Of a stretch of 64,000 nt of DNA, positions 1,851 through 43,154 are shown in pieces. This DNA is from Sipunculus nudus (taxonomy: Eukaryota > Annelida > Sipuncula > Golfingiida > Sipunculidae). The number at the start of each line of letters is the position of its first letter. Position 1 is the first letter of the stretch. The DNA lies in the NCBI GenBank assembly GCA_026874595.1, contig CM049310.1:30195558-30259557 (forward strand). The letters are read 5' to 3'. Under the pieces are notes generated by a model that saw only the letters and a list, made by a program, of their open reading frames with translations, was not told the origin of the DNA and searched no databases. A program made the translations under genes and the position numbers.

Positions 1851-3752
1851 AGAGGAAACCAGGGAGCCACAGGATGAAACGGTAGGATGAGAAGGAGAGC
1901 CGTCTGGTCCACGCGGGACAAGCAGAGAAGGACACGGCGGATGAGATGAGGCGCCGGAAACGCAAAGAGAAACCCGTTAGACCACATGGACGGCGGGATG
2001 TTGGGGAGACGGTCGCGAGGGTGATGTAGACACGTCGCAGTAGATTCGAGAACGGGGGGGGGGACAGAAAATCGAACAGATCGGAATCCGGCCGCCCCAG
2101 GCGAGCGAAAACACTCCGAACAACCGGGAGCTGAAGGAGCACCGGTGAAGGAGGAGACACATGGCGACAGGAAAGGGCGTCGGCAAGGATGTTCCACATG
2201 CCCGGAAGATGTGACGCACGAACCGAGGCCCGGAGAGAGATGCATAGATCGAACAAAAGGTAGGTCTCCTGCATCAGAGAGGGAGACCGAGTACCGCCCT
2301 GCCTGTTGATATATGCCACAACCGTGGTGTTGTTGGTCTGGACGAGAATGTGACGGCCGATCAAGCGGGGGGACCAGCGGGAGATCACGCTACGGACGGC
2401 ATGCAGTTCCAGGATATTGATATGAAGCAGAAGTTCCGAGGGGGACCATATCCCCGAGGCGCGAAGATCGGCCAGATGGGCCCCCCAACGGAGGAGAGAC
2501 GCTTCGGTATAAATTGTGCAATCGACATCCTGAGAAAAGGGAACGCCCCGCAGGAGAAAGGAAAGGTCCAGCCAGGGACGAAGGGACCTCCACGTGAGCC
2601 GAAACGGGAGGACCGTAGGACAAACCGATGTTAAACGGAGAAGGCCGTGATGGCGCAGGAGATACTGAATCGGACGTAGGAACAGTCAGCCGAATGGGAT
2701 AAAAGACGCGGCCCAGTTGAGAGTGCCGTGCAGAGAAGCCGCTGTCCAAGAGTCGACACGGCGCAGCGCGAGAAAGGAACGAAGCTGCTGGCGGAGTTTG
2801 AGAGCAAAATCACGCGGGAGAGACGCTGTGCCGGACGCAAAATTGAGCGTGACACCCAGAAATTGCAGCGACTGGGTGGGAGTGAGAAGGGATTTCTCCG
2901 CATTGACGAAAAAGCCAAGGTTCTGAAGTAAGGCGAGAACCCTGGAGCGATGAGACAGTAATAGGGAGCGATCGGCTGCATGGACAAGCCAATCGTCCAG
3001 ATAAGGGAGCACAGAAATGCCCTGTGATCGGAGATAACCCGTGACCGTGTGAACAAGAATGGTAAAAATCCAGGGGGCCACATTGATCCCGAACGGGAGG
3101 GCCCGGAATTGAAAAACGCGGTTCTGATATGTGAAGCGAAGAAACGGTTGAGAAGAGGGATGGATTGGAACGTGAAAATAGGCATCTGTAAGGTCTATTT
3201 TGAACGCCCAATCCATCCGACGAACAATGGGAGAACAGCATGGATATTGAACATTCGAAACGGGGGCGGTCGGATGAACAAATTTAGGCGCTTTAGGTCT
3301 ATGATGGGGCGCCACCGCCCGTGCGGCTTGGGAACAAGAAAAAGGCGGGAGTAAAACCCCATGGTGGACGGGGAAACCTCGATCATAGATTGAATCGCCT
3401 CTTCCAAAGCAAGGCGCTTGACGGGATCAGACGGAGGCGGAGTGTAGAACGGGTGCAGGGTGACGGGAGGTGCGTGCAAAAACGTAAGACGGAACCCGAA
3501 CTTTATGGTGCTGAGAACTAACCGATGTGAGGTGATGCCCGCCCAAGCGGGAAAATGGGCGCTGAGACGAGCACCGACCGGAACGAATGAGTCATTTCTT
3601 GGTCGAACCTCACTTAGAGGAACGACCACGAAAAGGCTGGGAACGGCTGTTATGGCAGGAAGGAGGTCGCGGGACGCGGTAGGATGGCCGAGGCACAAGA
3701 GAGGCAGAGTGGAGGCGGGCCTGATGATCCGAGCGCTCCAAGGCGCGGTCAA
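1645..3752 (-). pseudogene. DIRS reverse transcriptase-RNase H, broken
   Basis: The RT N-terminal part (about 3225-3752) has 'GFYSRLFLVPKPHGRWRP' and 'IIDLKRLNLFI'. The RT core continues in another frame with 'MDWAFKIDLTDAYFHVPIHP', 'ALPFGINVAPW' and the catalytic 'VLPYLDDWLVHA', the YxDD box with the Trp typical of DIRS. RNase H follows with 'TIYTEASLLRWGAHL', 'ILELHAV', 'VQTNNTTVVAYINRQGG' and 'LADALS'. Lesions seen are a one-base frameshift near 3230, an in-frame TGA at 2686-2688, and a frame change at the G/C run near 2054-2063. Two RNase H acidic positions also differ from the family (Asp to Glu in YTEAS, Asp to Asn in TNN). No methyltransferase domain was recognised. The protein is most likely inactive. 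Confidence 0.88.
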
Positions 3753-7855: not shown

Positions 7856-9570
7856 AATGACTTCTTGTAAAGGCAAATGACCTGAAAAATATCTTGCATA
7901 CTTCCCTTGTAGGTAAATGACAAGACAAAAATCAAACTGACTCAGTGTATAAGAAAATAATCCGGAAAATTTTAAACTGAATTATTGTAAAGGTAAAAAA
8001 CCTGAAAAATATCAAACTTAGTGTATAGGCAAATCACCTGAAACATAAAACTTACCTTATAGGTTAATGACTTGGACAATATCAAATTTAGTTACCTTAT
8101 AAATGACCTGAGGAAAATATTCGACTGACAGTGTACAGGTAAATGACCTGAAATAGATTGATTATTGTATTGATAAATGAGCAGAAAAATATTTTACAAT
8201 AACCTGAAAAGTATCAAACTGACTTACTGTATAGATAAATAACCAGAAATATGTCAAACTATCATAGTGTAAGAGTAAATTATTTGAAAAATATCAAACA
8301 TATCAAAATATCAAATGACCTTATAAATATCACACAGACTTATTGTGTAAGCAAATGACATGAAATATATCACAGTGAAATTGGAAAGGTGACTGAACTG
8401 AAAAATCTCATACGTACTTACCTTATAGGTAATTGACCAGAAAAATATCAAAATGACTTCGTGTTAAGGCAAATGACCTGAAAAATATCTTGCATACTTC
8501 CATTATAGGTAAATGACCAGAAAAAAAAAACTGATTTAGTGTATAAGAAAATAATCCGGAAAATATTAAACTGAATTATTTTATAGGTTAATGACCTGAA
8601 AAATATTAAACTGACTTAGTGTATAGGCAAATCACCTGAAACATAAAACTTACCTTATAGGTAAATGACCTGAACAATATCTAATGTACTGATCTCATAA
8701 ATGACCTTGGAAATATTCGACTGACAGTGTACAGGTAAATGACCTGAAAAATATTAATTTATTGTAAAAGTAAATAACCTGAAAATATCATACGTACTTA
8801 CCTTATAGATAATTGATCTGCACAATATCAAACGTACTTTTCTTATATATGACCTGAGAAATATTAGACTGACAGTATAAATGACCTGAAATATATTGAC
8901 TTATTGTATAGATAAATGAGCAGAAAAATATTATACAACGACCTGAAAAGTATCAAACTGACTTATTGTATAGATAAATGACCAGAAAAATGTCAAACTG
9001 ACTTAACTTATGGGTTAATGACCTGAAAAATTTCCAACGTACTTACATTATAGGTAAATGACCAATAAAATATCAAAATAAGCCATTGTAAAGGCAAATG
9101 ACCTGAAAAATATCTTGCATACCCTTATAGGTAAATGACCAGAAAAATATCAAACTGACTTAGTGTATGAGAAAATAATCCTGAAAATATTAAACTGAAT
9201 TATTGTAAAGGTAAATGACCTGAAAACTATCAAACTGACTTAGTGTATAGGCAAATGACCTGACATAAAATTTAACCTTAAAGGTAAATGACTTGAAAAA
9301 TATCAAACTGACTTATGGTGTTGATAAATGATCTGAAAAATATCAAACTGACTTACCTGGTGGGTAAATGACCTGAAAAATATCAACGTGTTTACCTTAA
9401 AGGCAAATGACCTGAAATATATCAAATTGACTTACCTTATTGGTAAATGACCAGAAAGATGTCAATCTGACTTAGTGTATAGGTGTGCGACCTGAAAAAT
9501 ATCGAACAGACTTATTGTACAAGTAAATGACCTGAAAAATATCAAACAAACTTATCATGTGGTGAATGAC
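7856..9570. repeat. Minisatellite array with ~600-bp higher-order units
   Basis: Higher-order units start near 7873, 8468 and 9094, each with the 'AATATCTTGCATAC' variant. Within each unit the ordered series of subunit variants is repeated (the GAAACATAAAACTTACC variant, then the ATTCGACTGACAGTGTACAG variant, and so on). This shows amplification of multi-subunit blocks, not single subunits. The last part (9290-9560) is a more regular run of simple subunits before the array fades out. Confidence 0.85.
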
Positions 9571-13339: not shown

Positions 13340-13620
13340 TATACCATTAGAGGTATAACAATGTGTTCATCATGTATATCGACTGTCTCTGTGATCATGC
13401 GATGTTGTGATGCGAGTCAAACCAGCAATTTCTTCAAAACTGGCATGGGCATGTTCGTGAAATCTCACTTAAGCTTTAAGTGGAAAGCTCTATAATTGCT
13501 AACGGGTTCATTATTATAATACGAAATCAATGCCTGAAGTCGACAGGTTCTATAACAATTTCAAGTTTTGCAGTTGAAAAAAAAATTCCTATTTATAATA
13601 GAATTTTATAATTAATATAA
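13340..13620. repeat. Dispersed repeat, copy 1 (second copy at 31912-32160)
   Basis: Shares long stretches with 31912-32160, including 'GTGTTCATCATGTATATCGA', 'AATTTCTTCAAAACTGGC' and 'AAGTTTTGCAGTTGAAA'. It lies directly before the 262-bp array. The second copy also lies upstream of a single 262-bp-type unit (33425-33545), so both parts probably belong to one element. Confidence 0.7.
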
Positions 13621-13627
13621 TGAATAT

Positions 13628-15090
13628 AACGTAAACAGGATATAAAATCATTTCGTAACCTTTTTGCGCTATTTCCGCTCTGCTACATTTGTTTTTCTGT
13701 TGTGCTTACAGCCTTTCAAATGGTGAATCACGACCATTGGCGGGACCAACTTAACAATAAGCCCAACGTCCACTCTCTAAGAACTTATGTGCACGAGTCT
13801 GGCCTCATTTACTGTATGGGCCAGAAGAGACTACAGGAATCTGCTTAGGAAATGTAGAAGGGAAACTACTTGAAAGGAAGGGAAAGAGATTAATTTAACG
13901 TAAACAGGACACAAAAACATATCGTAAACTGTGTGCGCTATTTCCGCTCTGCTGTATTTGTTTTCTGTTGAGCATACAGCCCTTCGAATGATCAATCACG
14001 ACCACTGGCGAGGCCAATTTAACAATAAGCCCAACGTCCGCTCTCTTAGGACCTGTGTGCACGAGTCTTGCCTCATTTACTGCATAGACCAGGAGAGACT
14101 ACAGGAATCTGCTGAGGAAATGTAGATGGAGACTTAATCAAGAGGAAGGAGTTAGTTTAACGTAAACTAGATATAAAATCATATCGTAAACTGTGTGCGC
14201 AATTTCCGCTCTATTGTATTCGGTTTCTGTTTTGCATACAACCTTTCAAATGGTCAATCACGACCATTGCGTGGCCAAGTTAACAATTAGCCCAACGTCC
14301 GCTCTCTTAGAACGTGTGCATGAGTCTGGCCTCATTTACTGCATAGGCTAGGAGAGACTACAGGTACCTGCTGAGGAAATGTAGAAGGTAACATACTCGA
14401 GGGGAAAGAAAAGAGGTGAATTTAACGTAAATGGGATATAAAATCTTATCGTAAAATTTTGCTCTCTTTCCGCTCCCCTGTATTTGTTACTTGTTGTGCC
14501 TTTCAAATGGTCAATCACGACCACTGGCGAGGCCAATTTAACAATAAGCCCAACGTCCGCTCTCTTAGAACGTGTGCATGAGTCTGGCCTCATTTACTGC
14601 ATAGGCCAGGAGAGACTACAAGAACCTGCTGAGGAAATGTTGAAGGGGACTTACTCGAGAGGAAGGGGAAGAGATGAATTTAACGTAAATAAGATATAAA
14701 ATCATAGCGTAAACTTTTTGCGCTATTTCCGCTCTGCTGCATTTGTTTTTCTGCTGTGTATACAGCCTTTTAAATGGCCAATCACGACCATTGGCGGGGC
14801 CAAGGGAACAATCATCCCAACGTTCGCTCTCCCAGAACATGTGTGCAGGAGTTAGGCATCATTTACCGAAAAACAAGGAGAGACTACAGGAATCTGAGGA
14901 AATTTAAAAGGGAACATACTCGAGAGGAAGGAAAAAATTTAAACCGTATTCAAACATGATATTTTCATTATATAGTCAATGTTTTTGCCATTTCGGCGGC
15001 GCTGAATTTCTTTCAAGGCTTTAAATAGAGCCACTCTTGTGTCCAATGGCGACAGTTAAAATGGCCAAGAAAGACTTCGGGAATATATTA
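13628..15090. repeat. 262-bp tandem array, five units plus a decayed sixth
   Basis: Units start at the motif AACGTAAA near 13628, 13897, 14159, 14424 and 14682, with a degenerate unit from about 14943 (spacings 258-269 bp). Each contains a block encoding 'NHDHWRGQFNNKPNVRSLRT' followed by 'CVHESGLIYC' and 'RLQE.AEEM', sometimes with stops. On the minus strand the same block has a segment 'GCCAGACTCATGCACACG' that faintly resembles a tRNA-Leu anticodon arm. Probably a repeat, not a gene. Confidence 0.8.
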
Positions 15091-20960: not shown

Positions 20961-20979
20961 GTTTTGGCGGATCCAAAAA

Positions 20980-23075
20980 TAAAGGTGGCTCCACCAGTCT
21001 GCAGAAACTAATAAAAACACTTAATGGTCAATATCCATGCAAAAAATCATGGTGATCTCTGCATTTGTTGTTCAGATACTTCAGTTTTTGTATCAAATTG
21101 TCCATTATTCTGAGGGATACTTCGGAGTCCTATAGCTTGAAGGATATGGGTAACAGAGACCTAATTTCAAGTTTCCACAGGCACCTTTCATGGGCCTCCT
21201 TGCATGACAAGAATGAAGATTCTAGGTCCAGTTGTTGCGATTTGTACCCTGTTGACAGATAACCACATCTTTAAAGGTCTCAAAAAAAAGAAAAAAATTC
21301 GTAAAAATTTGAAAAAAAAATAGAGGTGGCACACCCAGTCTGCAGAAACTGATGGAACAGCTCATGATCAATATGTATGCCAAAAATCATGACCATCAGT
21401 GTTGTAGTTATTGAAATACTGCAGTTTTTGTATCAAATTTTCCATTATTCTGGGGGGGGGGGGTATTTTGGACCCATACAGCTTAAAGAATATGGGTAAC
21501 AGAGACCTAATTTCAAGTTTCCATGGAGACTTTTCATGGGTCTCCCTGTGTGTCAAGAATAAAGATTCTTGGTCCAGTTTTTATGATTTGTGCCCTGTTA
21601 ACAGATGTTCATATCTTTAAAGGTCTCAAAAATTCAGAAAAATTTCGTAAAAAAAAAAACGAACAAATACAGGTGGTGCCACCAGTCTGCAGAAACTTAT
21701 GAAACACTCCATGATCAATATCCATGCAAACAATTATGGTTATCTCTGCATTAGTTGTTCAGATACTTTAGCTTTTGTATCAAATTTTCCATTATTCTGA
21801 TCTGTACTTTGGAGTGCCATAGCTCAAAGGATATGGGTAACAGAGACCAAATTTCAGGTTCCCATGGAGACTTATCATGGGTCTCCCTGTGTGTCAAGAA
21901 CGAAGATTCTAGGTCCAGTCGTTACGATTTGTACCCTGTTGACAGATAACTACATCCTTAAAGGTCTCAAAAATGGAGAAAACAATTCGTGAACATTGAA
22001 AAATACAGGTGGCGCCACCAGTCTGCACAAACTGATGAAACATCTCATGATCAATATGTATGTCGAAAATCATGACCATCAGTGATGTAGTTAATGAGAT
22101 ATTGAAGTTTTTGTATGAAATTTTTGACTGTTCTGGGGGGTAATTTTGGGCCCCATAGCTCGAAGGATATGGGTAACAGAGACCTAATTTCTGGTTTCCA
22201 TGGAGACTTTTCATAGGTCTCTCAGTGTGTCGAAAATGAAGTTTCTAGGTCCAGTCGTTACGATTTGTGCCACGCTAACAGATGACAGCATCCTCAAAGG
22301 TCTCAAAAATAGAGGAAAAAATCGTAAAAAATCAAACAGTACAGGTGGTGCCACCAGTCTGCAGGAACTGATCGAACATCTCATGATCAATATATATGCC
22401 AAAAATGAAGACCATCAGTGATGTAGTTATTGAGATATTGAAGTTTTTGTATGAAATTTTTTTACTATTCTGGGGGGTACTTTGGGGCCCCATAGCTCAA
22501 AGGATATGGGTAACAGAGACCTAATTTCTGGTTTCCAAGGAGATTTTTCATGGACCTCTCAGTGTGTCAAGAATTAAGATTCTAAGTCCAGTCTTTATGA
22601 TTTGTGCCTTGTTAACAGATGTTCACATTTTTAAAGGTCTCAAAAATAGAGAAAAAAATTCGTAAAAAATCGAAAAATACAGGTGGCGCCACCAGTCTGC
22701 AGGAAGTGATGTAACATCTCATGATCAATATGTATGCCAAAAATCATGACCATCAGTCAAGTAGGTAATGAGATATTGAAGTTTTTGTATGAAATTTTTG
22801 ACTTTTCTGGGGGGTACTTTGGGGCCACATAGCTCGAAGGATATGGGTAACAGAGACCTAATTTCTGGTTTCCAAGGAGATTTTTTATGGACCTCTCAGA
22901 ATCCCAAGTTACAAGGTTCTAGGTCCAGCGGTTACGATTTGTGCCTGGTTAACAGACGGACAGACGGACAGACGGACAGACAGACAGACGGACAGACGGA
23001 CAGACGGACAGACGGACGACGGACAAAGAGTGATCGCTATAGCTCAGATGACTTTCAGTCAGCTGAGCTAAAAAT
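20980..23075. repeat. ~340-bp tandem repeat array, six units, with GGAC tract and 3' hairpin
   Basis: Units start at the (near-)palindrome near 20983, 21324, 21672, 22008, 22343 and 22682. Each has 'AGTCTGCAGAAACTGATG', 'CATGATCAATATGTATGCC', 'GGATATGGGTAACAGAGACC' and 'TCTAGGTCCAGTCGTTACGA'. The last unit runs into 'GTTAACAGACGGACAGACGG' (tract 22948-23025). It ends in a strong hairpin: 23040-23053 pairs with 23057-23070 (TAGCTCAG.TGACT / AGTCA.CTGAGCTA), followed by AAAAA. Short frames of about 65 codons in several units reflect unit similarity, not genes. Confidence 0.88.
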
Positions 23076-36071: not shown

Positions 36072-36840
36072 ACGGAACCTAATATCAACAGATCACGTGT
36101 TCGTGACGAGCATAAATTTTGTTATGGCGATAAAATAAAACAGATTTTGTTACACTAGGCAGCGTGAAATGTCTAGGGGAATGAATAAAGAAGTCTATGG
36201 TTTCTTGTTAACAAATAATTATAATTTATTCTTAAAACAACTCTAACATTATTATACAATAAATCAATACAATTACACAGTATAACAAAAGTACAACAGC
36301 AAATCAATACAATTACACACTTTAATGAATAAAATGTACAATACCTGGGTACCACCGCTGTCACAGCGACAACAAGTCCTTTAAAACCAATAAACCACAT
36401 AAACAGTTCAAATATCCATACTAAAGCTCTTGTTATAGTCCCGAAAGCAAACTAGAAAAGGGCGCAAAAAACCTACATAGAGTTTGTAGAATCTCGGAAA
36501 CTACTGCAATTCTCGGATAGGCCCAAAACTCACTCACACTCTTCCGTGTCCGCTGGAATATTTCTCTCTCCTCCCTCTCGGTTCTAAACACAGCCCCTTA
36601 TTTATAAATTTTTTACCTCAAGCCGAGAATATTCCATTCACGGACAATCCAAAAGAACCCAACAATACATAATACACACGCCCAAAGAACATTACTTGAA
36701 CAAAGAACACTGTGTTTCTACACGTCAGACCCCTCACGTGAGCCGGGCCAGCTCGCGCGTCTCCCATGGCAACGGACAATGCCAGCACTACACAGACACA
36801 TGTACGATTGCTGCATACAATAAAAGGGACACCAGTTATA
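36068..36840 (-). mobile_element. Candidate solo LTR inserted in a TA microsatellite
   Basis: On the minus strand the segment ends ...GGTTCCGTAACA, the usual CA end of an LTR, and has a TATA-like 'TTTATAAATAAGGGG' (about 36595-36609) and downstream AATAAA-type signals (about 36225-36240). It lies between two TA microsatellites (36011-36067 and 36844-36906), as if inserted in one. The 5' end of the LTR and a target duplication were not identified. Confidence 0.4.
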
Positions 36841-36843
<3 letters not shown>

Positions 36844-36891
<48 letters not shown>

Positions 36892-36906
36892 AATATATAT
36901 ATATAT
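36844..36906. repeat. (TA)n microsatellite
   Basis: TA run with a few interruptions, directly downstream (minus strand) of the hammerhead motif. Confidence 0.93.
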
Positions 36907-36923
36907 AAATAACTCTGAAGAAA

Positions 36924-36990
36924 AACAACACTGTTAATTCACAACAGACTGTTTCACGGGATGCGACCCGATCATCAGGTGAATGTGGTT
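36924..36990 (-). ncRNA. Type I hammerhead self-cleaving ribozyme
   Basis: All catalytic boxes are present on the minus strand: CUGAUGA (36978-36972), then stem II CGGG/CCCG (36970-36967 with 36960-36957, loop UCGCAU), then GAAAC (36955-36951). Stem III is minimal: the final A and the C of GAAAC plus the next A pair with UGU (36946-36944) around a GUC loop. The cleavage triplet GUU (36945-36943) predicts cutting between 36943 and 36942. Stem I pairs AUUCAC (36984-36979) with GUGAAU (36942-36937), and an outer helix AACCAC with GUGUU is possible. A very short stem III is known from hammerheads in Penelope-like retroelements and retrozymes, so this is probably the relic of such an element. The U-U at the base of stem II is unusual. 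Confidence 0.82.
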
Positions 36991-38010
36991 AGAATGAAGC
37001 TAACGTCGTGGTTTGAAAAGCCGAGACTTTACGAGATTACGAGATTATGCTTTGTGCGATTCGGGTCGGGAGGGGGGGGGGGGGCATATGAAAGACTGAC
37101 ACTGATCCTATTGTTCTCGGGTGCACAATAAGATTGGTCGGGGTACACGTGCGATACTGGAACATAACAGGGCAGGGCAAAGAGGTTAAATAATGTAGTA
37201 AATAGTAAATATAATACAAAGATATAACCAGGATGCTCAATCAGCATATTGAAATGATTTCTAATAGGGCCTTCGAAGCAGTGAACATATCAGTAGTATA
37301 CATATGATATGATAAAAATACACATATACTGTGAAAATACACAATATACAAGGCAAATATACAATATAAAAGGCAAATATACTATACCCATACCAAGTGG
37401 TGCAAGTCTCCTAGCTGAAGGTCGTAAAGCCCATTAGACCAGGATAAAGTAGAACTTTCCTGTCATCCAATGGACTCCACGAGCCAGCAGTGAGAGAACA
37501 ACTACCTGAATAAATGAGTCTGCCCAGCGGATCCTCGTTGGGGGGGGGGGGTTAAGGGGGCACGCTGAATATTAGTACGAATGCTAGGTTTTAAAATATA
37601 CTTTATATATATACTTTGAGGAAAAAATAGCACCAAATATAATTAAACAATTTTCATTGATTTCATGTTGCATGAAACAATATCTATTAAGGATAAAATG
37701 CATAGTTTTTTTTATATTTTTCCCCAAGGTTCTCCTGCTCTCTGTGCGGCTTTCTAGAATCCAGAGAATCACAGCATGGCTAATTTATATTCATTCATAT
37801 CATAGCCCCTATTATCGACCAATGACCACACGGGTCCGGAACAGTTCCATACGTCTAAGTGTTCGGAATAATCACGTACTGAAAGTGACGGAACGATAGC
37901 TTGTATAATTAAACAATGTCCAGGTCCTGTCTTTCAGCAATAGCTTTATTGTATTTGTATAGAATGTCAAGTGTGTGTGTGTGGGAGGGGGGATGGAATC
38001 TTATTCAAAT
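36991..38010. other. No gene recognised
   Basis: G runs at about 37070-37082 and 37541-37550. Small ORFs show no domain. The part up to about 37260 may belong to the same retroelement as the hammerhead. Confidence 0.45.
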
Positions 38011-40508: not shown

Positions 40509-42836
40509 TTAGATTTGTTCACTCCTTAGAGCAGCCCGCAAACGGGGCCAGAATGTAGTCACGTGATCAACGCCATCCACTCCTGGCCATTCCAAGTATG
40601 TTTGTTGTCTTAGAATTGTAACCAAAGCTCGTGGCATGTCAGTCACAGGTACCTCCTCAAGCATAACAACGACGATTTTATACACGCCACGCTCTATATG
40701 ATGATGACGCGCCATGTACATTTCAAATTTACACCAACCACTCCTAACGAAATTGTTGGAAAGTATCAGCAGCGCTCGACGACTGTTGGAGATACTTTTT
40801 AAAATGTTTTCCTCGATTGACTGGCCCAAAATAAAATCTCTCTGATGCAAACAGAAACGTACAGGGTTGTCGGTCTCTTCGAGATTCGGTATGAGATAAT
40901 CTCGAACCCACCAAAAGTCTCTCTCACTGTGGGCCACAAATGCGTCATACTCGTATTCTCGCTTATCTTCCTGTAGTTCCTCATAAAGCGTTCGTCTGAC
41001 CTTGAACTGTAAGATACAGTACTTGATGTCCCAACGATGTCTGTACAGAAAAACTGAGACTGTCACCAGAAATGCCAAGGCACATAGGAGCCCGATCGTG
41101 GCGTCCAACCACTGACCACTTGTGCATCGTTTTTCTAATATTGTTAAAATGAGGCGCAAGTCCGACAAGCGATATGTTTTCCCCTTGAGCATACAGTATG
41201 ATTTTTCCAGACCTCTGAATTGGTTTCGTTTATTGTAGCACCATCCCAGGAATCCTAGAGAATTACAGGAACATTCCAAAGGGTTCCCGTCGAGACGCAA
41301 AATGAACGGTTTTCCGTACAGTTCTATAGCGTTTTGGAATTCTGCTTCAAGAGATTTCATTGCTTTCGGTGATAGGTATCTTATATTATTACCTCTTAGG
41401 TCCAATATTTTTAGATGTTTTAATCCACTCATGTCGATGTTCAGATCCATGATTTCATTATCCGCTAAGGTTAAATTTGCAAGTCTGTAGCTGTTACTGA
41501 AAAGCTTCGACGTAAGACGTGAAATATGGTTTCTTGAAAGATCTAGGTATACTAGATTCGTCAAGTTGCTGAAAAGCCCCGGAGTAAGACGTGTAATCGG
41601 GTTTCTCGACAGATCTAGGTAAACTAGGTTCGTCAAGTTGCTGAAAAGCCCTGGTGTAAGACGTGAAATCTGGTTTCTTGACAGATCTAGGTAAAGTAGA
41701 TTCGCCAAGTTCCTAAAGGGACCTGAAAATCGAGAAAGCATTTTTCCCAACCTGTTATTCGAAAGGAGGAGCTTCCTAATGGCCACTGAATAATGCTTGC
41801 CGAAAGAGTGACTTGATAAAAACTGCATATTGTTGTTTGACAAGTCTAAAGTGAACCCCGTTGAGGCTTTCTCAAATTCTATAGAACCATACAAATTTTG
41901 AAAGTTGTTTCGTGAAGAGTCAATAAACTTTACTTGCATTCGCTTTGAACACGTGATGTTTAGCGTCATACCCGTGGGGATACTCCCAATATCAAAGGCT
42001 TCCTGTGCATAAAGTTCCCGTAGGGTTGTTGGCCAGGGTATGATTATCTGCATGTTTGATGGAAGGGCTACCATTTCGGTCCCCGGAAGTAGTGGCGCTT
42101 GTTTACTGATATCCAGGACACGGATGTGCTGCAGTTGTCCAAACACTGTCTGTGAGAGAATGTCAAGTTTGTTCGTGCTCACATTCATTACCGTAAGGCT
42201 AGGAATAAATTTGTAGATTTCAGAACTAAGGCTACGTATCATGTTGTTACTTAGGTCCAACTTCCGTAACGTGGTAGTTGCACAGGCAGACAGAAATTCA
42301 CTTGTTATTTTATTCGTATGAAACGGAGTATAACTCGTAATATTGACCAACAAAAGACTAGTTAAATATGTTTTATTTAGTCCGGTCATTACCGCAATAA
42401 ATTCACTAAAGTTTCTTTTCCCAAGCATCGCATTGTACGATAGATCCAGTGATTCAAGTCTGAGGAACGGGCGGAACAAGTGCTTTGGAATCAGACCACC
42501 GGAACCGATGTCGTTCCTTCTCAAACTGAGCTCACGCAAATTATCAAGTCCGAAGAAAGCGTCCTGTTCCAGAGCGTTGATGCTGCAGTTGTCCAACAGC
42601 AGTGTCCTTAGATTTGTACAGTACATGAACGTTCGGTCCGGCATTTTCTTCAGGATATTATCAGTTAAGATGAATTTGACAACACTTCCGGTACAGAGAT
42701 CTGGTACCACAGTGAGGTGTTTTGATTGACAGTTAACAGTGTCATCTGTACAGGTACATGGCCAACACCTGTCCAACTCCGAGGTCGCAACTGCTGACAT
42801 ATATCCGGCGATTATCAACAAAGCCGGCAGTTCCAT
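40509..42836 (-). CDS. TLR: Toll-like receptor, single exon, 775 aa
   Basis: A type I membrane receptor of innate immunity. A hydrophobic signal peptide (residues 1-19) is followed by an LRR N-terminal cap with Cys24, 27, 29 and 36. Leucine-rich repeats run from about 50 to 510, then a single C-terminal cap (NPLECSCNSLGFLGWC, 518-533, with Cys548 and Cys571), a membrane segment (about 577-597) and a cytoplasmic TIR domain (about 628-770). TIR box 1 is YDAFVAHS (630-637), box 2 is RFCLHQRDFILG (660-671) and box 3 is FW (762-763). Box 2 has Ile-Leu where many TLRs have a Pro before Gly, so adaptor binding could differ. One capping module places it in the single-cysteine-cluster (vertebrate-like) type. 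Three LRRs (about 375-447) are nearly identical 24-residue copies. The frame is intact and intronless. Ligand unknown. Confidence 0.96.
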   Translation of the reverse strand: MELPALLIIAGYMSAVATSELDRCWPCTCTDDTVNCQSKHLTVVPDLCTGSVVKFILTDNILKKMPDRTFMYCTNLRTLLLDNCSINALEQDAFFGLDNLRELSLRRNDIGSGGLIPKHLFRPFLRLESLDLSYNAMLGKRNFSEFIAVMTGLNKTYLTSLLLVNITSYTPFHTNKITSEFLSACATTTLRKLDLSNNMIRSLSSEIYKFIPSLTVMNVSTNKLDILSQTVFGQLQHIRVLDISKQAPLLPGTEMVALPSNMQIIIPWPTTLRELYAQEAFDIGSIPTGMTLNITCSKRMQVKFIDSSRNNFQNLYGSIEFEKASTGFTLDLSNNNMQFLSSHSFGKHYSVAIRKLLLSNNRLGKMLSRFSGPFRNLANLLYLDLSRNQISRLTPGLFSNLTNLVYLDLSRNPITRLTPGLFSNLTNLVYLDLSRNHISRLTSKLFSNSYRLANLTLADNEIMDLNIDMSGLKHLKILDLRGNNIRYLSPKAMKSLEAEFQNAIELYGKPFILRLDGNPLECSCNSLGFLGWCYNKRNQFRGLEKSYCMLKGKTYRLSDLRLILTILEKRCTSGQWLDATIGLLCALAFLVTVSVFLYRHRWDIKYCILQFKVRRTLYEELQEDKREYEYDAFVAHSERDFWWVRDYLIPNLEETDNPVRFCLHQRDFILGQSIEENILKSISNSRRALLILSNNFVRSGWCKFEMYMARHHHIERGVYKIVVVMLEEVPVTDMPRALVTILRQQTYLEWPGVDGVDHVTTFWPRLRAALRSEQI

Positions 42837-43154
42837 AGTGTTTGTATGTCCTTCTAAAATGATCAGTTACCTTTACTAACCCCTCCTTCGCGGTCAAAAT
42901 TCCTTAACTAGAATTCGCATGACTGTACTCTCACAAGTCCATAGATTCAGAGTTGTATGGTAGAACTGTTGGTTGTATAAATGTAAATCTTGCAATAAAC
43001 GCCTGTCTTGCACCTTGCGCCACGGATTTACATTAAAGAACAGGAGATATGAATCAAGGACGGATAGTGGATTATAGAAAAGGGATGTGTCTGTCCGAGG
43101 AGGGAGTTTCAACACCTTCGCCGAGCGAAACAAGCGTCAAGGAAACTAGTAGGG

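What the first reader, a model, noticed from the sequence alone, without database searches (positions are those of the whole stretch)
36924..36990. Hammerhead ribozyme with minimal stem III, probably from a Penelope-like element or retrozyme
All catalytic boxes occur on the minus strand in the right order and spacing: CUGAUGA, stem II CGGG/CCCG, GAAAC and a GUU cleavage triplet. Stem I is perfect over six pairs (AUUCAC/GUGAAU), with an outer helix possible. The predicted cut falls between 36943 and 36942. No retroelement protein is recognisable next to it, so this may be a ribozyme-only non-autonomous element. A TA microsatellite lies directly downstream.
Basis: partly seen in the sequence, partly recalled or inferred. 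Interest (0 to 1): 0.75.

Follow-up and report, generated by a model that had tools for sequence, protein, structure and literature searches.

The report
Truncated Penelope-like retroelement carrying hammerhead motif
The ribozyme-like motif sits near the end of a shortened copy of a mobile element that occurs hundreds of times in this genome, and the ends of those copies hint at how the element's RNA is copied into DNA.

Summary
The motif is real. All hammerhead boxes lie at 36984-36937 (minus), cut 36943|36942, and the 36-nt core occurs exactly 586 times in the genome (reversed control 0). It lies near the 3' end of a 691-bp 5'-truncated copy (36909-37599) of a Penelope-like element (PLE). 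Longer copies form tandem units of about 2,924 bp with a 713-aa ORF (RT- and GIY-YIG-like by eye; no profile match). So it is not a ribozyme-only element; the TA microsatellite is the likely target. Catalysis is unproven: position 10.1/11.1 is U.U in 88-89 of 89 copies, no Rfam hammerhead model matches, and the fold is not the minimum-energy one. In 100 sampled copies, 62 pass from a 34-nt tail into TA repeats; with the window copy, 35 of 101 start 46-57 nt before the cut, 17 exactly at ATTCTAACC, an initiator-like site. The hammerhead thus probably opens the transcript. 90 of 100 retain the core upstream of the cut, so most templates were uncleaved. Thirteen verified ends (plus L017) start at the cut, but ends 3-5 nt inside are as common: cleavage in vivo is suggested, not shown. 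Hammerheads in PLEs are known; this is a new family.

The parts
36909..37599 (-). 5'-truncated copy of a Penelope-like element: last codons of the ORF, 3' UTR/pLTR, hammerhead and tail
   Evidence: blastn to a real unit of L009: 98.6% over 661 (37599-36943) and 100% over 34 (36942-36909); no tblastn match to the ORF in the window
36937..36984 (-). hammerhead motif from stem I 5' strand to stem I 3' strand; predicted cut 36943|36942
   Evidence: sequence; exact 36-mer 586 times in the genome
36956..36971 (-). stem II CGGG/CCCG with 6-nt loop, flanked by U36971 and U36956 (U.U at 10.1/11.1)
36943..36955 (-). GAAAC, 3-bp palindromic stem III (ACAGUCUGU) and GUU
36909..36942 (-). 34-nt tail from the cut to the end of the element
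36992..36998 (-). TTCATTC, initiator-like; inferred transcription start at A36995, 53 nt before the cut
   Evidence: 17 of 101 copies start exactly here; initiator consensus recalled
36837..36911 (.). TA microsatellite at the 3' junction, likely integration target
   Evidence: 62 of 100 sampled copies run into TA repeats

Best explanation
The window holds a 5'-truncated copy of a young, abundant Penelope-like retroelement. SHOWN: longer copies form tandem units of about 2,924 bp with a 713-aa ORF; sampled copies usually end 34 nt after the predicted cut, mostly in TA repeats; many begin about 53 nt before the cut; 13 of 14 sampled head-to-head pairs join a short hammerhead+tail arm to a copy that continues towards the ORF. 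INFERRED: transcription starts at ATTCTAACC in the pLTR, so the hammerhead lies within about the first 60 nt of the RNA and recurs near its 3' end. The element protein cuts TA repeats; the TA end pairs with UUAUA at the end of the tail and primes reverse transcription there, inside the RNA. A start at the 3' tail gives long copies, often 5'-truncated like the window's; a start at the 5' tail gives 87-nt mini-insertions or the inverted arm. Most templates are not cleaved, because the copies run through the cut. Cleavage, if it happens, would remove the capped 5' leader or split the 3' tail from the body and leave tail-only or cut-site-starting copies, of which a few are seen.
For: Tandem units and ORF. 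Exact motif count 586, tail 28-mer 1185. 3' ends: 62 of 100 TA, 36 continue into the next unit, 2 other. 5' ends: 17 of 101 at 53 nt, 35 of 101 at 46-57 nt. 113 genome matches to a filter for 5' ends at ATTCTAACC; G at -1 in 63 of the 77 listed ones left after setting aside 23 TAGA palindromes. Head-to-head pairs: 59 places with a gap up to 30 nt; 13 of 14 sampled pairs asymmetric. Internal initiation, tail, use of both DNA strands and AT-rich cutting are reported in vitro for PAc (PMC11167929 parts 1-2).
Against: No Pfam, NCBIfam or PDB match names the ORF. The 5' cluster could be a reverse-transcriptase stop rather than a transcription start; no RNA data. The extra G is confounded by head-to-head partners: among single copies 4 of 8 at the start site have G against 4 of 25 elsewhere, Fisher p 0.07. 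The sample is contig-ordered (C1 and the start of C2), requires an intact 28-nt tail, counts both arms of pairs, and holds likely duplicates (L066 and L071).
Confidence: 0.85

Rival explanations
1. The hammerhead is active in vivo and cleaved RNA (5'-OH at GUGAAUUAACAG) is template for part of the insertions, or is circularised and copied by rolling to give tandem units.
For: 13 of 21 filtered rows are real ends at the cut or within 2 nt, including three pairs with both arms there (L102, L112, L115), plus L017; at most 3 of 6 rows at -5 could be real. The palindromic stem III suits pairing between two motifs; PLE hammerheads are reported to cleave as dimers (Lunse 2017, title seen in PMC7761336) and, for PAc, only with protein.
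Against: Ends at +3 to +5 are as frequent (13 real of 17 rows), so there is no sharp peak; microhomology may explain some joins (L100, L106, L107 share one junction). U.U at 10.1/11.1. Block duplication in the C17 array points to DNA-level expansion. 38 of 43 exact hammerheads keep the exact tail.
Confidence: 0.45
2. The motif is a relic without catalytic role; it persists by hitch-hiking or as a structural or protein-binding element of the PLE RNA.
For: U.U at 10.1/11.1; no Rfam match; hammerhead pairs at -7.5 kcal/mol against -19.0 for the best fold; most copies read through the cut. In PAc, catalytic mutants did not change insertion in vitro.
Against: All catalytic boxes are kept in both subfamilies, though the family is young, so conservation says little. 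Ends at the cut exist.
Confidence: 0.4
3. A ribozyme-only, non-autonomous element or retrozyme.
For: The window copy has no ORF. 87-nt hammerhead+tail mini-insertions exist elsewhere (L016, L022, L040 and others).
Against: The window copy matches the ORF-bearing unit up to its truncation. Mini-insertions have varied 5' ends and are explained by internal initiation. Animal retrozymes are described as about 170-400 nt non-coding repeats (PMC7229834, passages).
Confidence: 0.04
4. The cluster of 5' ends reflects reverse transcriptase stopping at the edge of the folded hammerhead, not a transcription start.
For: The cluster lies just outside stem I; no RNA data.
Against: 17 of 101 ends fall on one base at an initiator-like site, with some excess of a G not present in the element.
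Confidence: 0.25

Closest known systems
Poseidon of Anolis carolinensis, PAc (PMC11167929, parts 1-2 read)
   Same: Tandem pLTR organisation, hammerhead in the pLTR, 30-40 nt tail, AT-rich target, internal initiation of reverse transcription.
   Different: In PAc the cut lies 26 bp after the start codon and initiation is at a site not homologous to the target; here the cut lies well upstream of the first ATG of the ORF (L009: cut after 3170, ATG at 3350) and the initiation site UUAUA matches the TA target. The ORF here is 713 aa stop to stop.
PLEs with minimal type I hammerheads (Cervera and de la Pena 2014, not held; described in passages of PMC7229834, PMC7761336 and PMC6155905)
   Same: Minimal type I hammerhead with hardly any stem III, in pseudo-LTRs of a tandem retroelement.
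   Different: U.U at 10.1/11.1; whether published PLE hammerheads share it could not be checked.
Penelope families of Adineta vaga (PMC3846280, passages)
   Same: pLTRs, 31-bp tail, inverted 5' pLTR.
   Different: Here very many short inverted arms whose ends cluster near the hammerhead, and a TA-repeat target.
Non-LTR retrozymes (PMC7229834, passages)
   Same: Type I hammerhead in tandem repeats of animal genomes.
   Different: Retrozymes are about 170-400 nt and non-coding; this unit is about 2.9 kb with an ORF.

Membership tests
Penelope-like element | single ORF with RT and GIY-YIG domains | tested here: inconclusive
   713-aa ORF with RT-like (FDIVDFYPSI, YRDD) and GIY-YIG-like (IVY-x12-YIG-x8-R-x3-H) motifs by eye, motifs recalled; no Pfam, NCBIfam or PDB match; structure prediction not run
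Penelope-like element | tandem or partial tandem units with pseudo-LTRs | tested here: met
   tandem units, spacing 2,920 and 2,924 bp in L009
Penelope-like element | 30-40 nt tail at the 3' end | tested here: met
   34-nt tail in the window copy and the sampled copies
Penelope-like element | inverted pLTR arm at the 5' side of some copies | tested here: met
   59 head-to-head places; 13 of 14 sampled pairs asymmetric
Penelope-like element | hammerhead motif in the pLTR | tested here: met
   sequence motif in each tandem unit of L009; activity not tested
Hammerhead ribozyme, type I | conserved core CUGAUGA ... GAAA with NUH cleavage triplet | tested here: met
Hammerhead ribozyme, type I | stem II closing on the core with a standard pair at 10.1/11.1 | tested here: not met
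   U.U; U in 88 of 89 and 89 of 89 copies
Hammerhead ribozyme, type I | match to an Rfam hammerhead covariance model | tested here: not met
   for the window; none for this motif in five further loci
Hammerhead ribozyme, type I | self-cleavage at the predicted site | not testable with these tools
   genomic ends at the cut are suggestive only
Non-LTR retrozyme | small non-coding tandem repeat of about 170-400 nt | tested here: not met
   unit about 2,924 bp with a 713-aa ORF

The most novel reading that the evidence does not exclude
The hammerhead occupies the capped 5' end of the PLE mRNA and acts as a cap-removal switch. Capped RNA is the template of ordinary insertions (5' ends at the start site, often with an extra G), while protein-assisted cleavage makes a second, uncapped template class whose insertions start exactly at the cut (tail-only inserts and cut-to-cut head-to-head pairs). 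The ends of genomic copies would then be an in vivo record of PLE ribozyme activity.
Probability: 0.28. Interest if true: 0.72.

Novelty: new member of a known kind. Interest (0 to 1): 0.45.

Why it matters
[quoted passage not shown] This family is young and has hundreds of exact copies, so the ends of its insertions can be read as a record of which RNA ends the reverse transcriptase met. Here they indicate that most templates were uncleaved and that the hammerhead probably lies at the extreme 5' end of the transcript, which makes 5' RACE and simple cleavage assays decisive. The match between the TA target and the RNA initiation site also differs from the one PLE studied in vitro.

Tried and rejected
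Rfam: no hammerhead match for this motif; the miRNA names with low E-values are below their gathering scores and fall on the inverted repeats. Covariation: a degenerate search for hammerheads with a different stem II base gave 102 places; the 100 listed look to me like mutated copies of the same family, so covariation could not be tested. Relatives in viral contigs: none confirmed. Retrozyme and ribozyme-only readings rejected as told above. In one search, stops at 139 and 441-442 nt are alignment stops (poly-C tract; second subfamily), not true ends, and were not used as ends. A sharp peak of 5' ends at the cut was expected if cleavage were frequent; the controls did not show one. No other animal genome could be searched.

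Full report
OBSERVATION. The core pattern is found once in the window; 7 of 100 shuffles also have one, so the window alone is weak evidence. The exact 36-mer is present 586 times in the genome (317 forward, 269 reverse), its reversed control 0 times. Corrections: stem II is separated from the core by U.U at 10.1/11.1 (U in 88 and 89 of 89 aligned copies), and stem III is 3 bp at most. Rfam gives no hammerhead match in the window. The strand folds no better than shuffles. In the 87-nt leader the hammerhead pairs give -7.5 kcal/mol (-11.9 when used as constraint) against -19.0 for the best fold.

WHAT IT IS. A 386-bp query gives 40 scored matches of 2016 first-look candidates, all at 98-100% identity, several about 2,925 bp apart. 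In L009 and L010 the copies are tandem units with a 713-aa ORF; in L010 the third ORF is shorter (668 aa). A search with the ORF gives 63 scored matches of 4240 candidates, none with an internal stop (only the best are scored). The ORF has RT-like and GIY-YIG-like motifs by eye (recalled motifs) but no Pfam, NCBIfam or PDB match, so the name Penelope-like rests mainly on architecture: pseudo-LTR tandems, a 34-nt tail, inverted 5' arms, a hammerhead in the pLTR and an AT-rich target, as described for PLEs (PMC11167929 parts 1-2; PMC3846280 passages; PMC6155905 passages). The window copy spans 36909-37599, begins at the last codons of the ORF, and the window holds no tblastn match to the ORF.

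ENDS OF COPIES. All 100 places listed (of 1185 genome-wide; the listing is in contig order, so C1 and the start of C2) were fetched in 86 regions. 3' side: 62 of 100 pass from the tail into TA repeats, 36 continue into the next unit, 2 other. 5' side, with the window copy added (101): 17 start exactly 53 nt before the cut at ATTCTAACC, 35 at 46-57 nt (these 17 included), 12 nearer, 54 further. Both arms of pairs are counted, and L066 and L071 look like copies of one locus. The element's own sequence there, TTCATTC, fits the initiator consensus (recalled). Genome-wide, 113 copies pass a filter for a 5' end at this point. Of the 100 listed, 23 are TAGA palindromes; of the other 77, 63 have G at -1, where the element has C. 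Untemplated G is taken as a trace of the cap in LINE-1 and SVA insertions (PMC4859970 passages). Against this: the filter itself bars C at -1, and many junctions are head-to-head, so the partner may supply the G; among single copies 4 of 8 at this position have G against 4 of 25 at other positions up to 113 nt, p 0.07.

HEAD-TO-HEAD PAIRS. 59 places have two hammerheads head to head with a gap of 0-30 nt (50 of the 59 listed, each on both strands). In the sample, 13 of 14 pairs are asymmetric: one arm stops after the tail (12 in TA repeats, L061 in other DNA) and the other continues into the unit; L053 continues on both sides. I read this as a long copy joined to a short hammerhead+tail arm, made by starts at the 3' and the 5' tail; whether the long arm reaches a full ORF was not checked for each. 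It fits the internal initiation and use of both strands reported in vitro for PAc.

WAS THE RNA CLEAVED? If templates were usually cleaved, insertions would be tail-only and start at the cut, or end at it. Mostly they do not: 90 of 100 sampled copies have CTGATGA within 40 nt upstream of the tail, and 38 of 43 exact hammerheads in the range shared keep the exact tail (the other 5 were not examined). A filter for 5' ends at the cut gives 21 rows. With flanks fetched for all 21, I judge 5 as deletions or indels inside longer copies (L097, L098, L104, L110, L111), 3 as complex (L103, L105, L109) and 13 as real ends at the cut or within 2 nt of it (L099, L100, L101, L102 twice, L106, L107, L108, L112 twice, L113, L114, L115). 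In L102, L112 and L115 both arms start there. L017, which the filter misses, is one more. Controls: 17 rows at +5 (13 real ends at +3 to +5, 4 indels; 16 fetched, the 17th is the partner arm in L101), 6 rows at -5 (5 inspected, at most 3 of 6 real), 9 rows at -25 (not fetched); flanks. Head-to-head pairs near the cut: 17, about 10 with at least one arm at the cut by my reading of the letters. So there is a step at or just inside the cut but no sharp peak. Cleavage in vivo is suggested, not shown.

ARRAYS. On C17, unit sequence runs from 42718236 (L116) and is still found at 42870000-42870299 but not at 42873000, about 152-155 kb or some 52 units if unbroken; it was sampled, not read through. 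Among the 25 ORF places listed there, 11 pairs lie 38,022-38,031 bp apart (about 13 units), 8 of the 11 with equal scores, which points to duplication of a block at the DNA level. On C12, unit sequence is found at 49440000 and 49511000 but not at 49436000 or 49515000, and orientation switches near 49469640.

JUDGEMENT. Hammerheads in PLEs are known, so this is a new member of a known kind; whether this family is already catalogued could not be checked. The useful part is the record of ends, which speaks to a question the literature calls open (PMC7761336 passage). Cervera 2014, Lunse 2017 and Schostak 2008 are not held, so I cannot say that the start-site cluster or the TA target is unreported; the listings of searches showed no title that I recognised as reporting them, and apart from the papers cited with passages I saw only those listings. 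Probabilities are judgements, not computed.

Noticed in passing
G000:C17:42718236-42870299 (L116, L117, L139, L140): Very long tandem array of PLE units, many with intact ORFs, with a repeat of about 38,029 bp (13 units), like a higher-order repeat of a satellite.
   Followed up: partly
G000:C12:49440000-49511299 (L118, L154, L156): Array of PLE units that switches orientation head to head near 49469640.
   Followed up: partly
window 40509-42866 (-): 785-aa ORF that looks like an LRR-TIR (Toll-like) receptor by eye; not searched in a family library.
   Followed up: no
L026, L046, L047, L073 (hammerhead position 24): The most variable core base is G12: 6 of 89 aligned copies lack G, 4 of them with T. 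It may mark an uncleavable sublineage or chance.
   Followed up: no
L131:4-49 (+), G000:C16:25264135-25264317: Weak Hammerhead_3 match (17.8 bits, gathering 48.5, E 2.3) beside a tail-only insertion; perhaps an unrelated retrozyme-like hammerhead, perhaps chance.
   Followed up: no
window 13620-14935, 20975-22956, 8940-9570: Tandem arrays with units of 258, 336 and about 40 bp.
   Followed up: no
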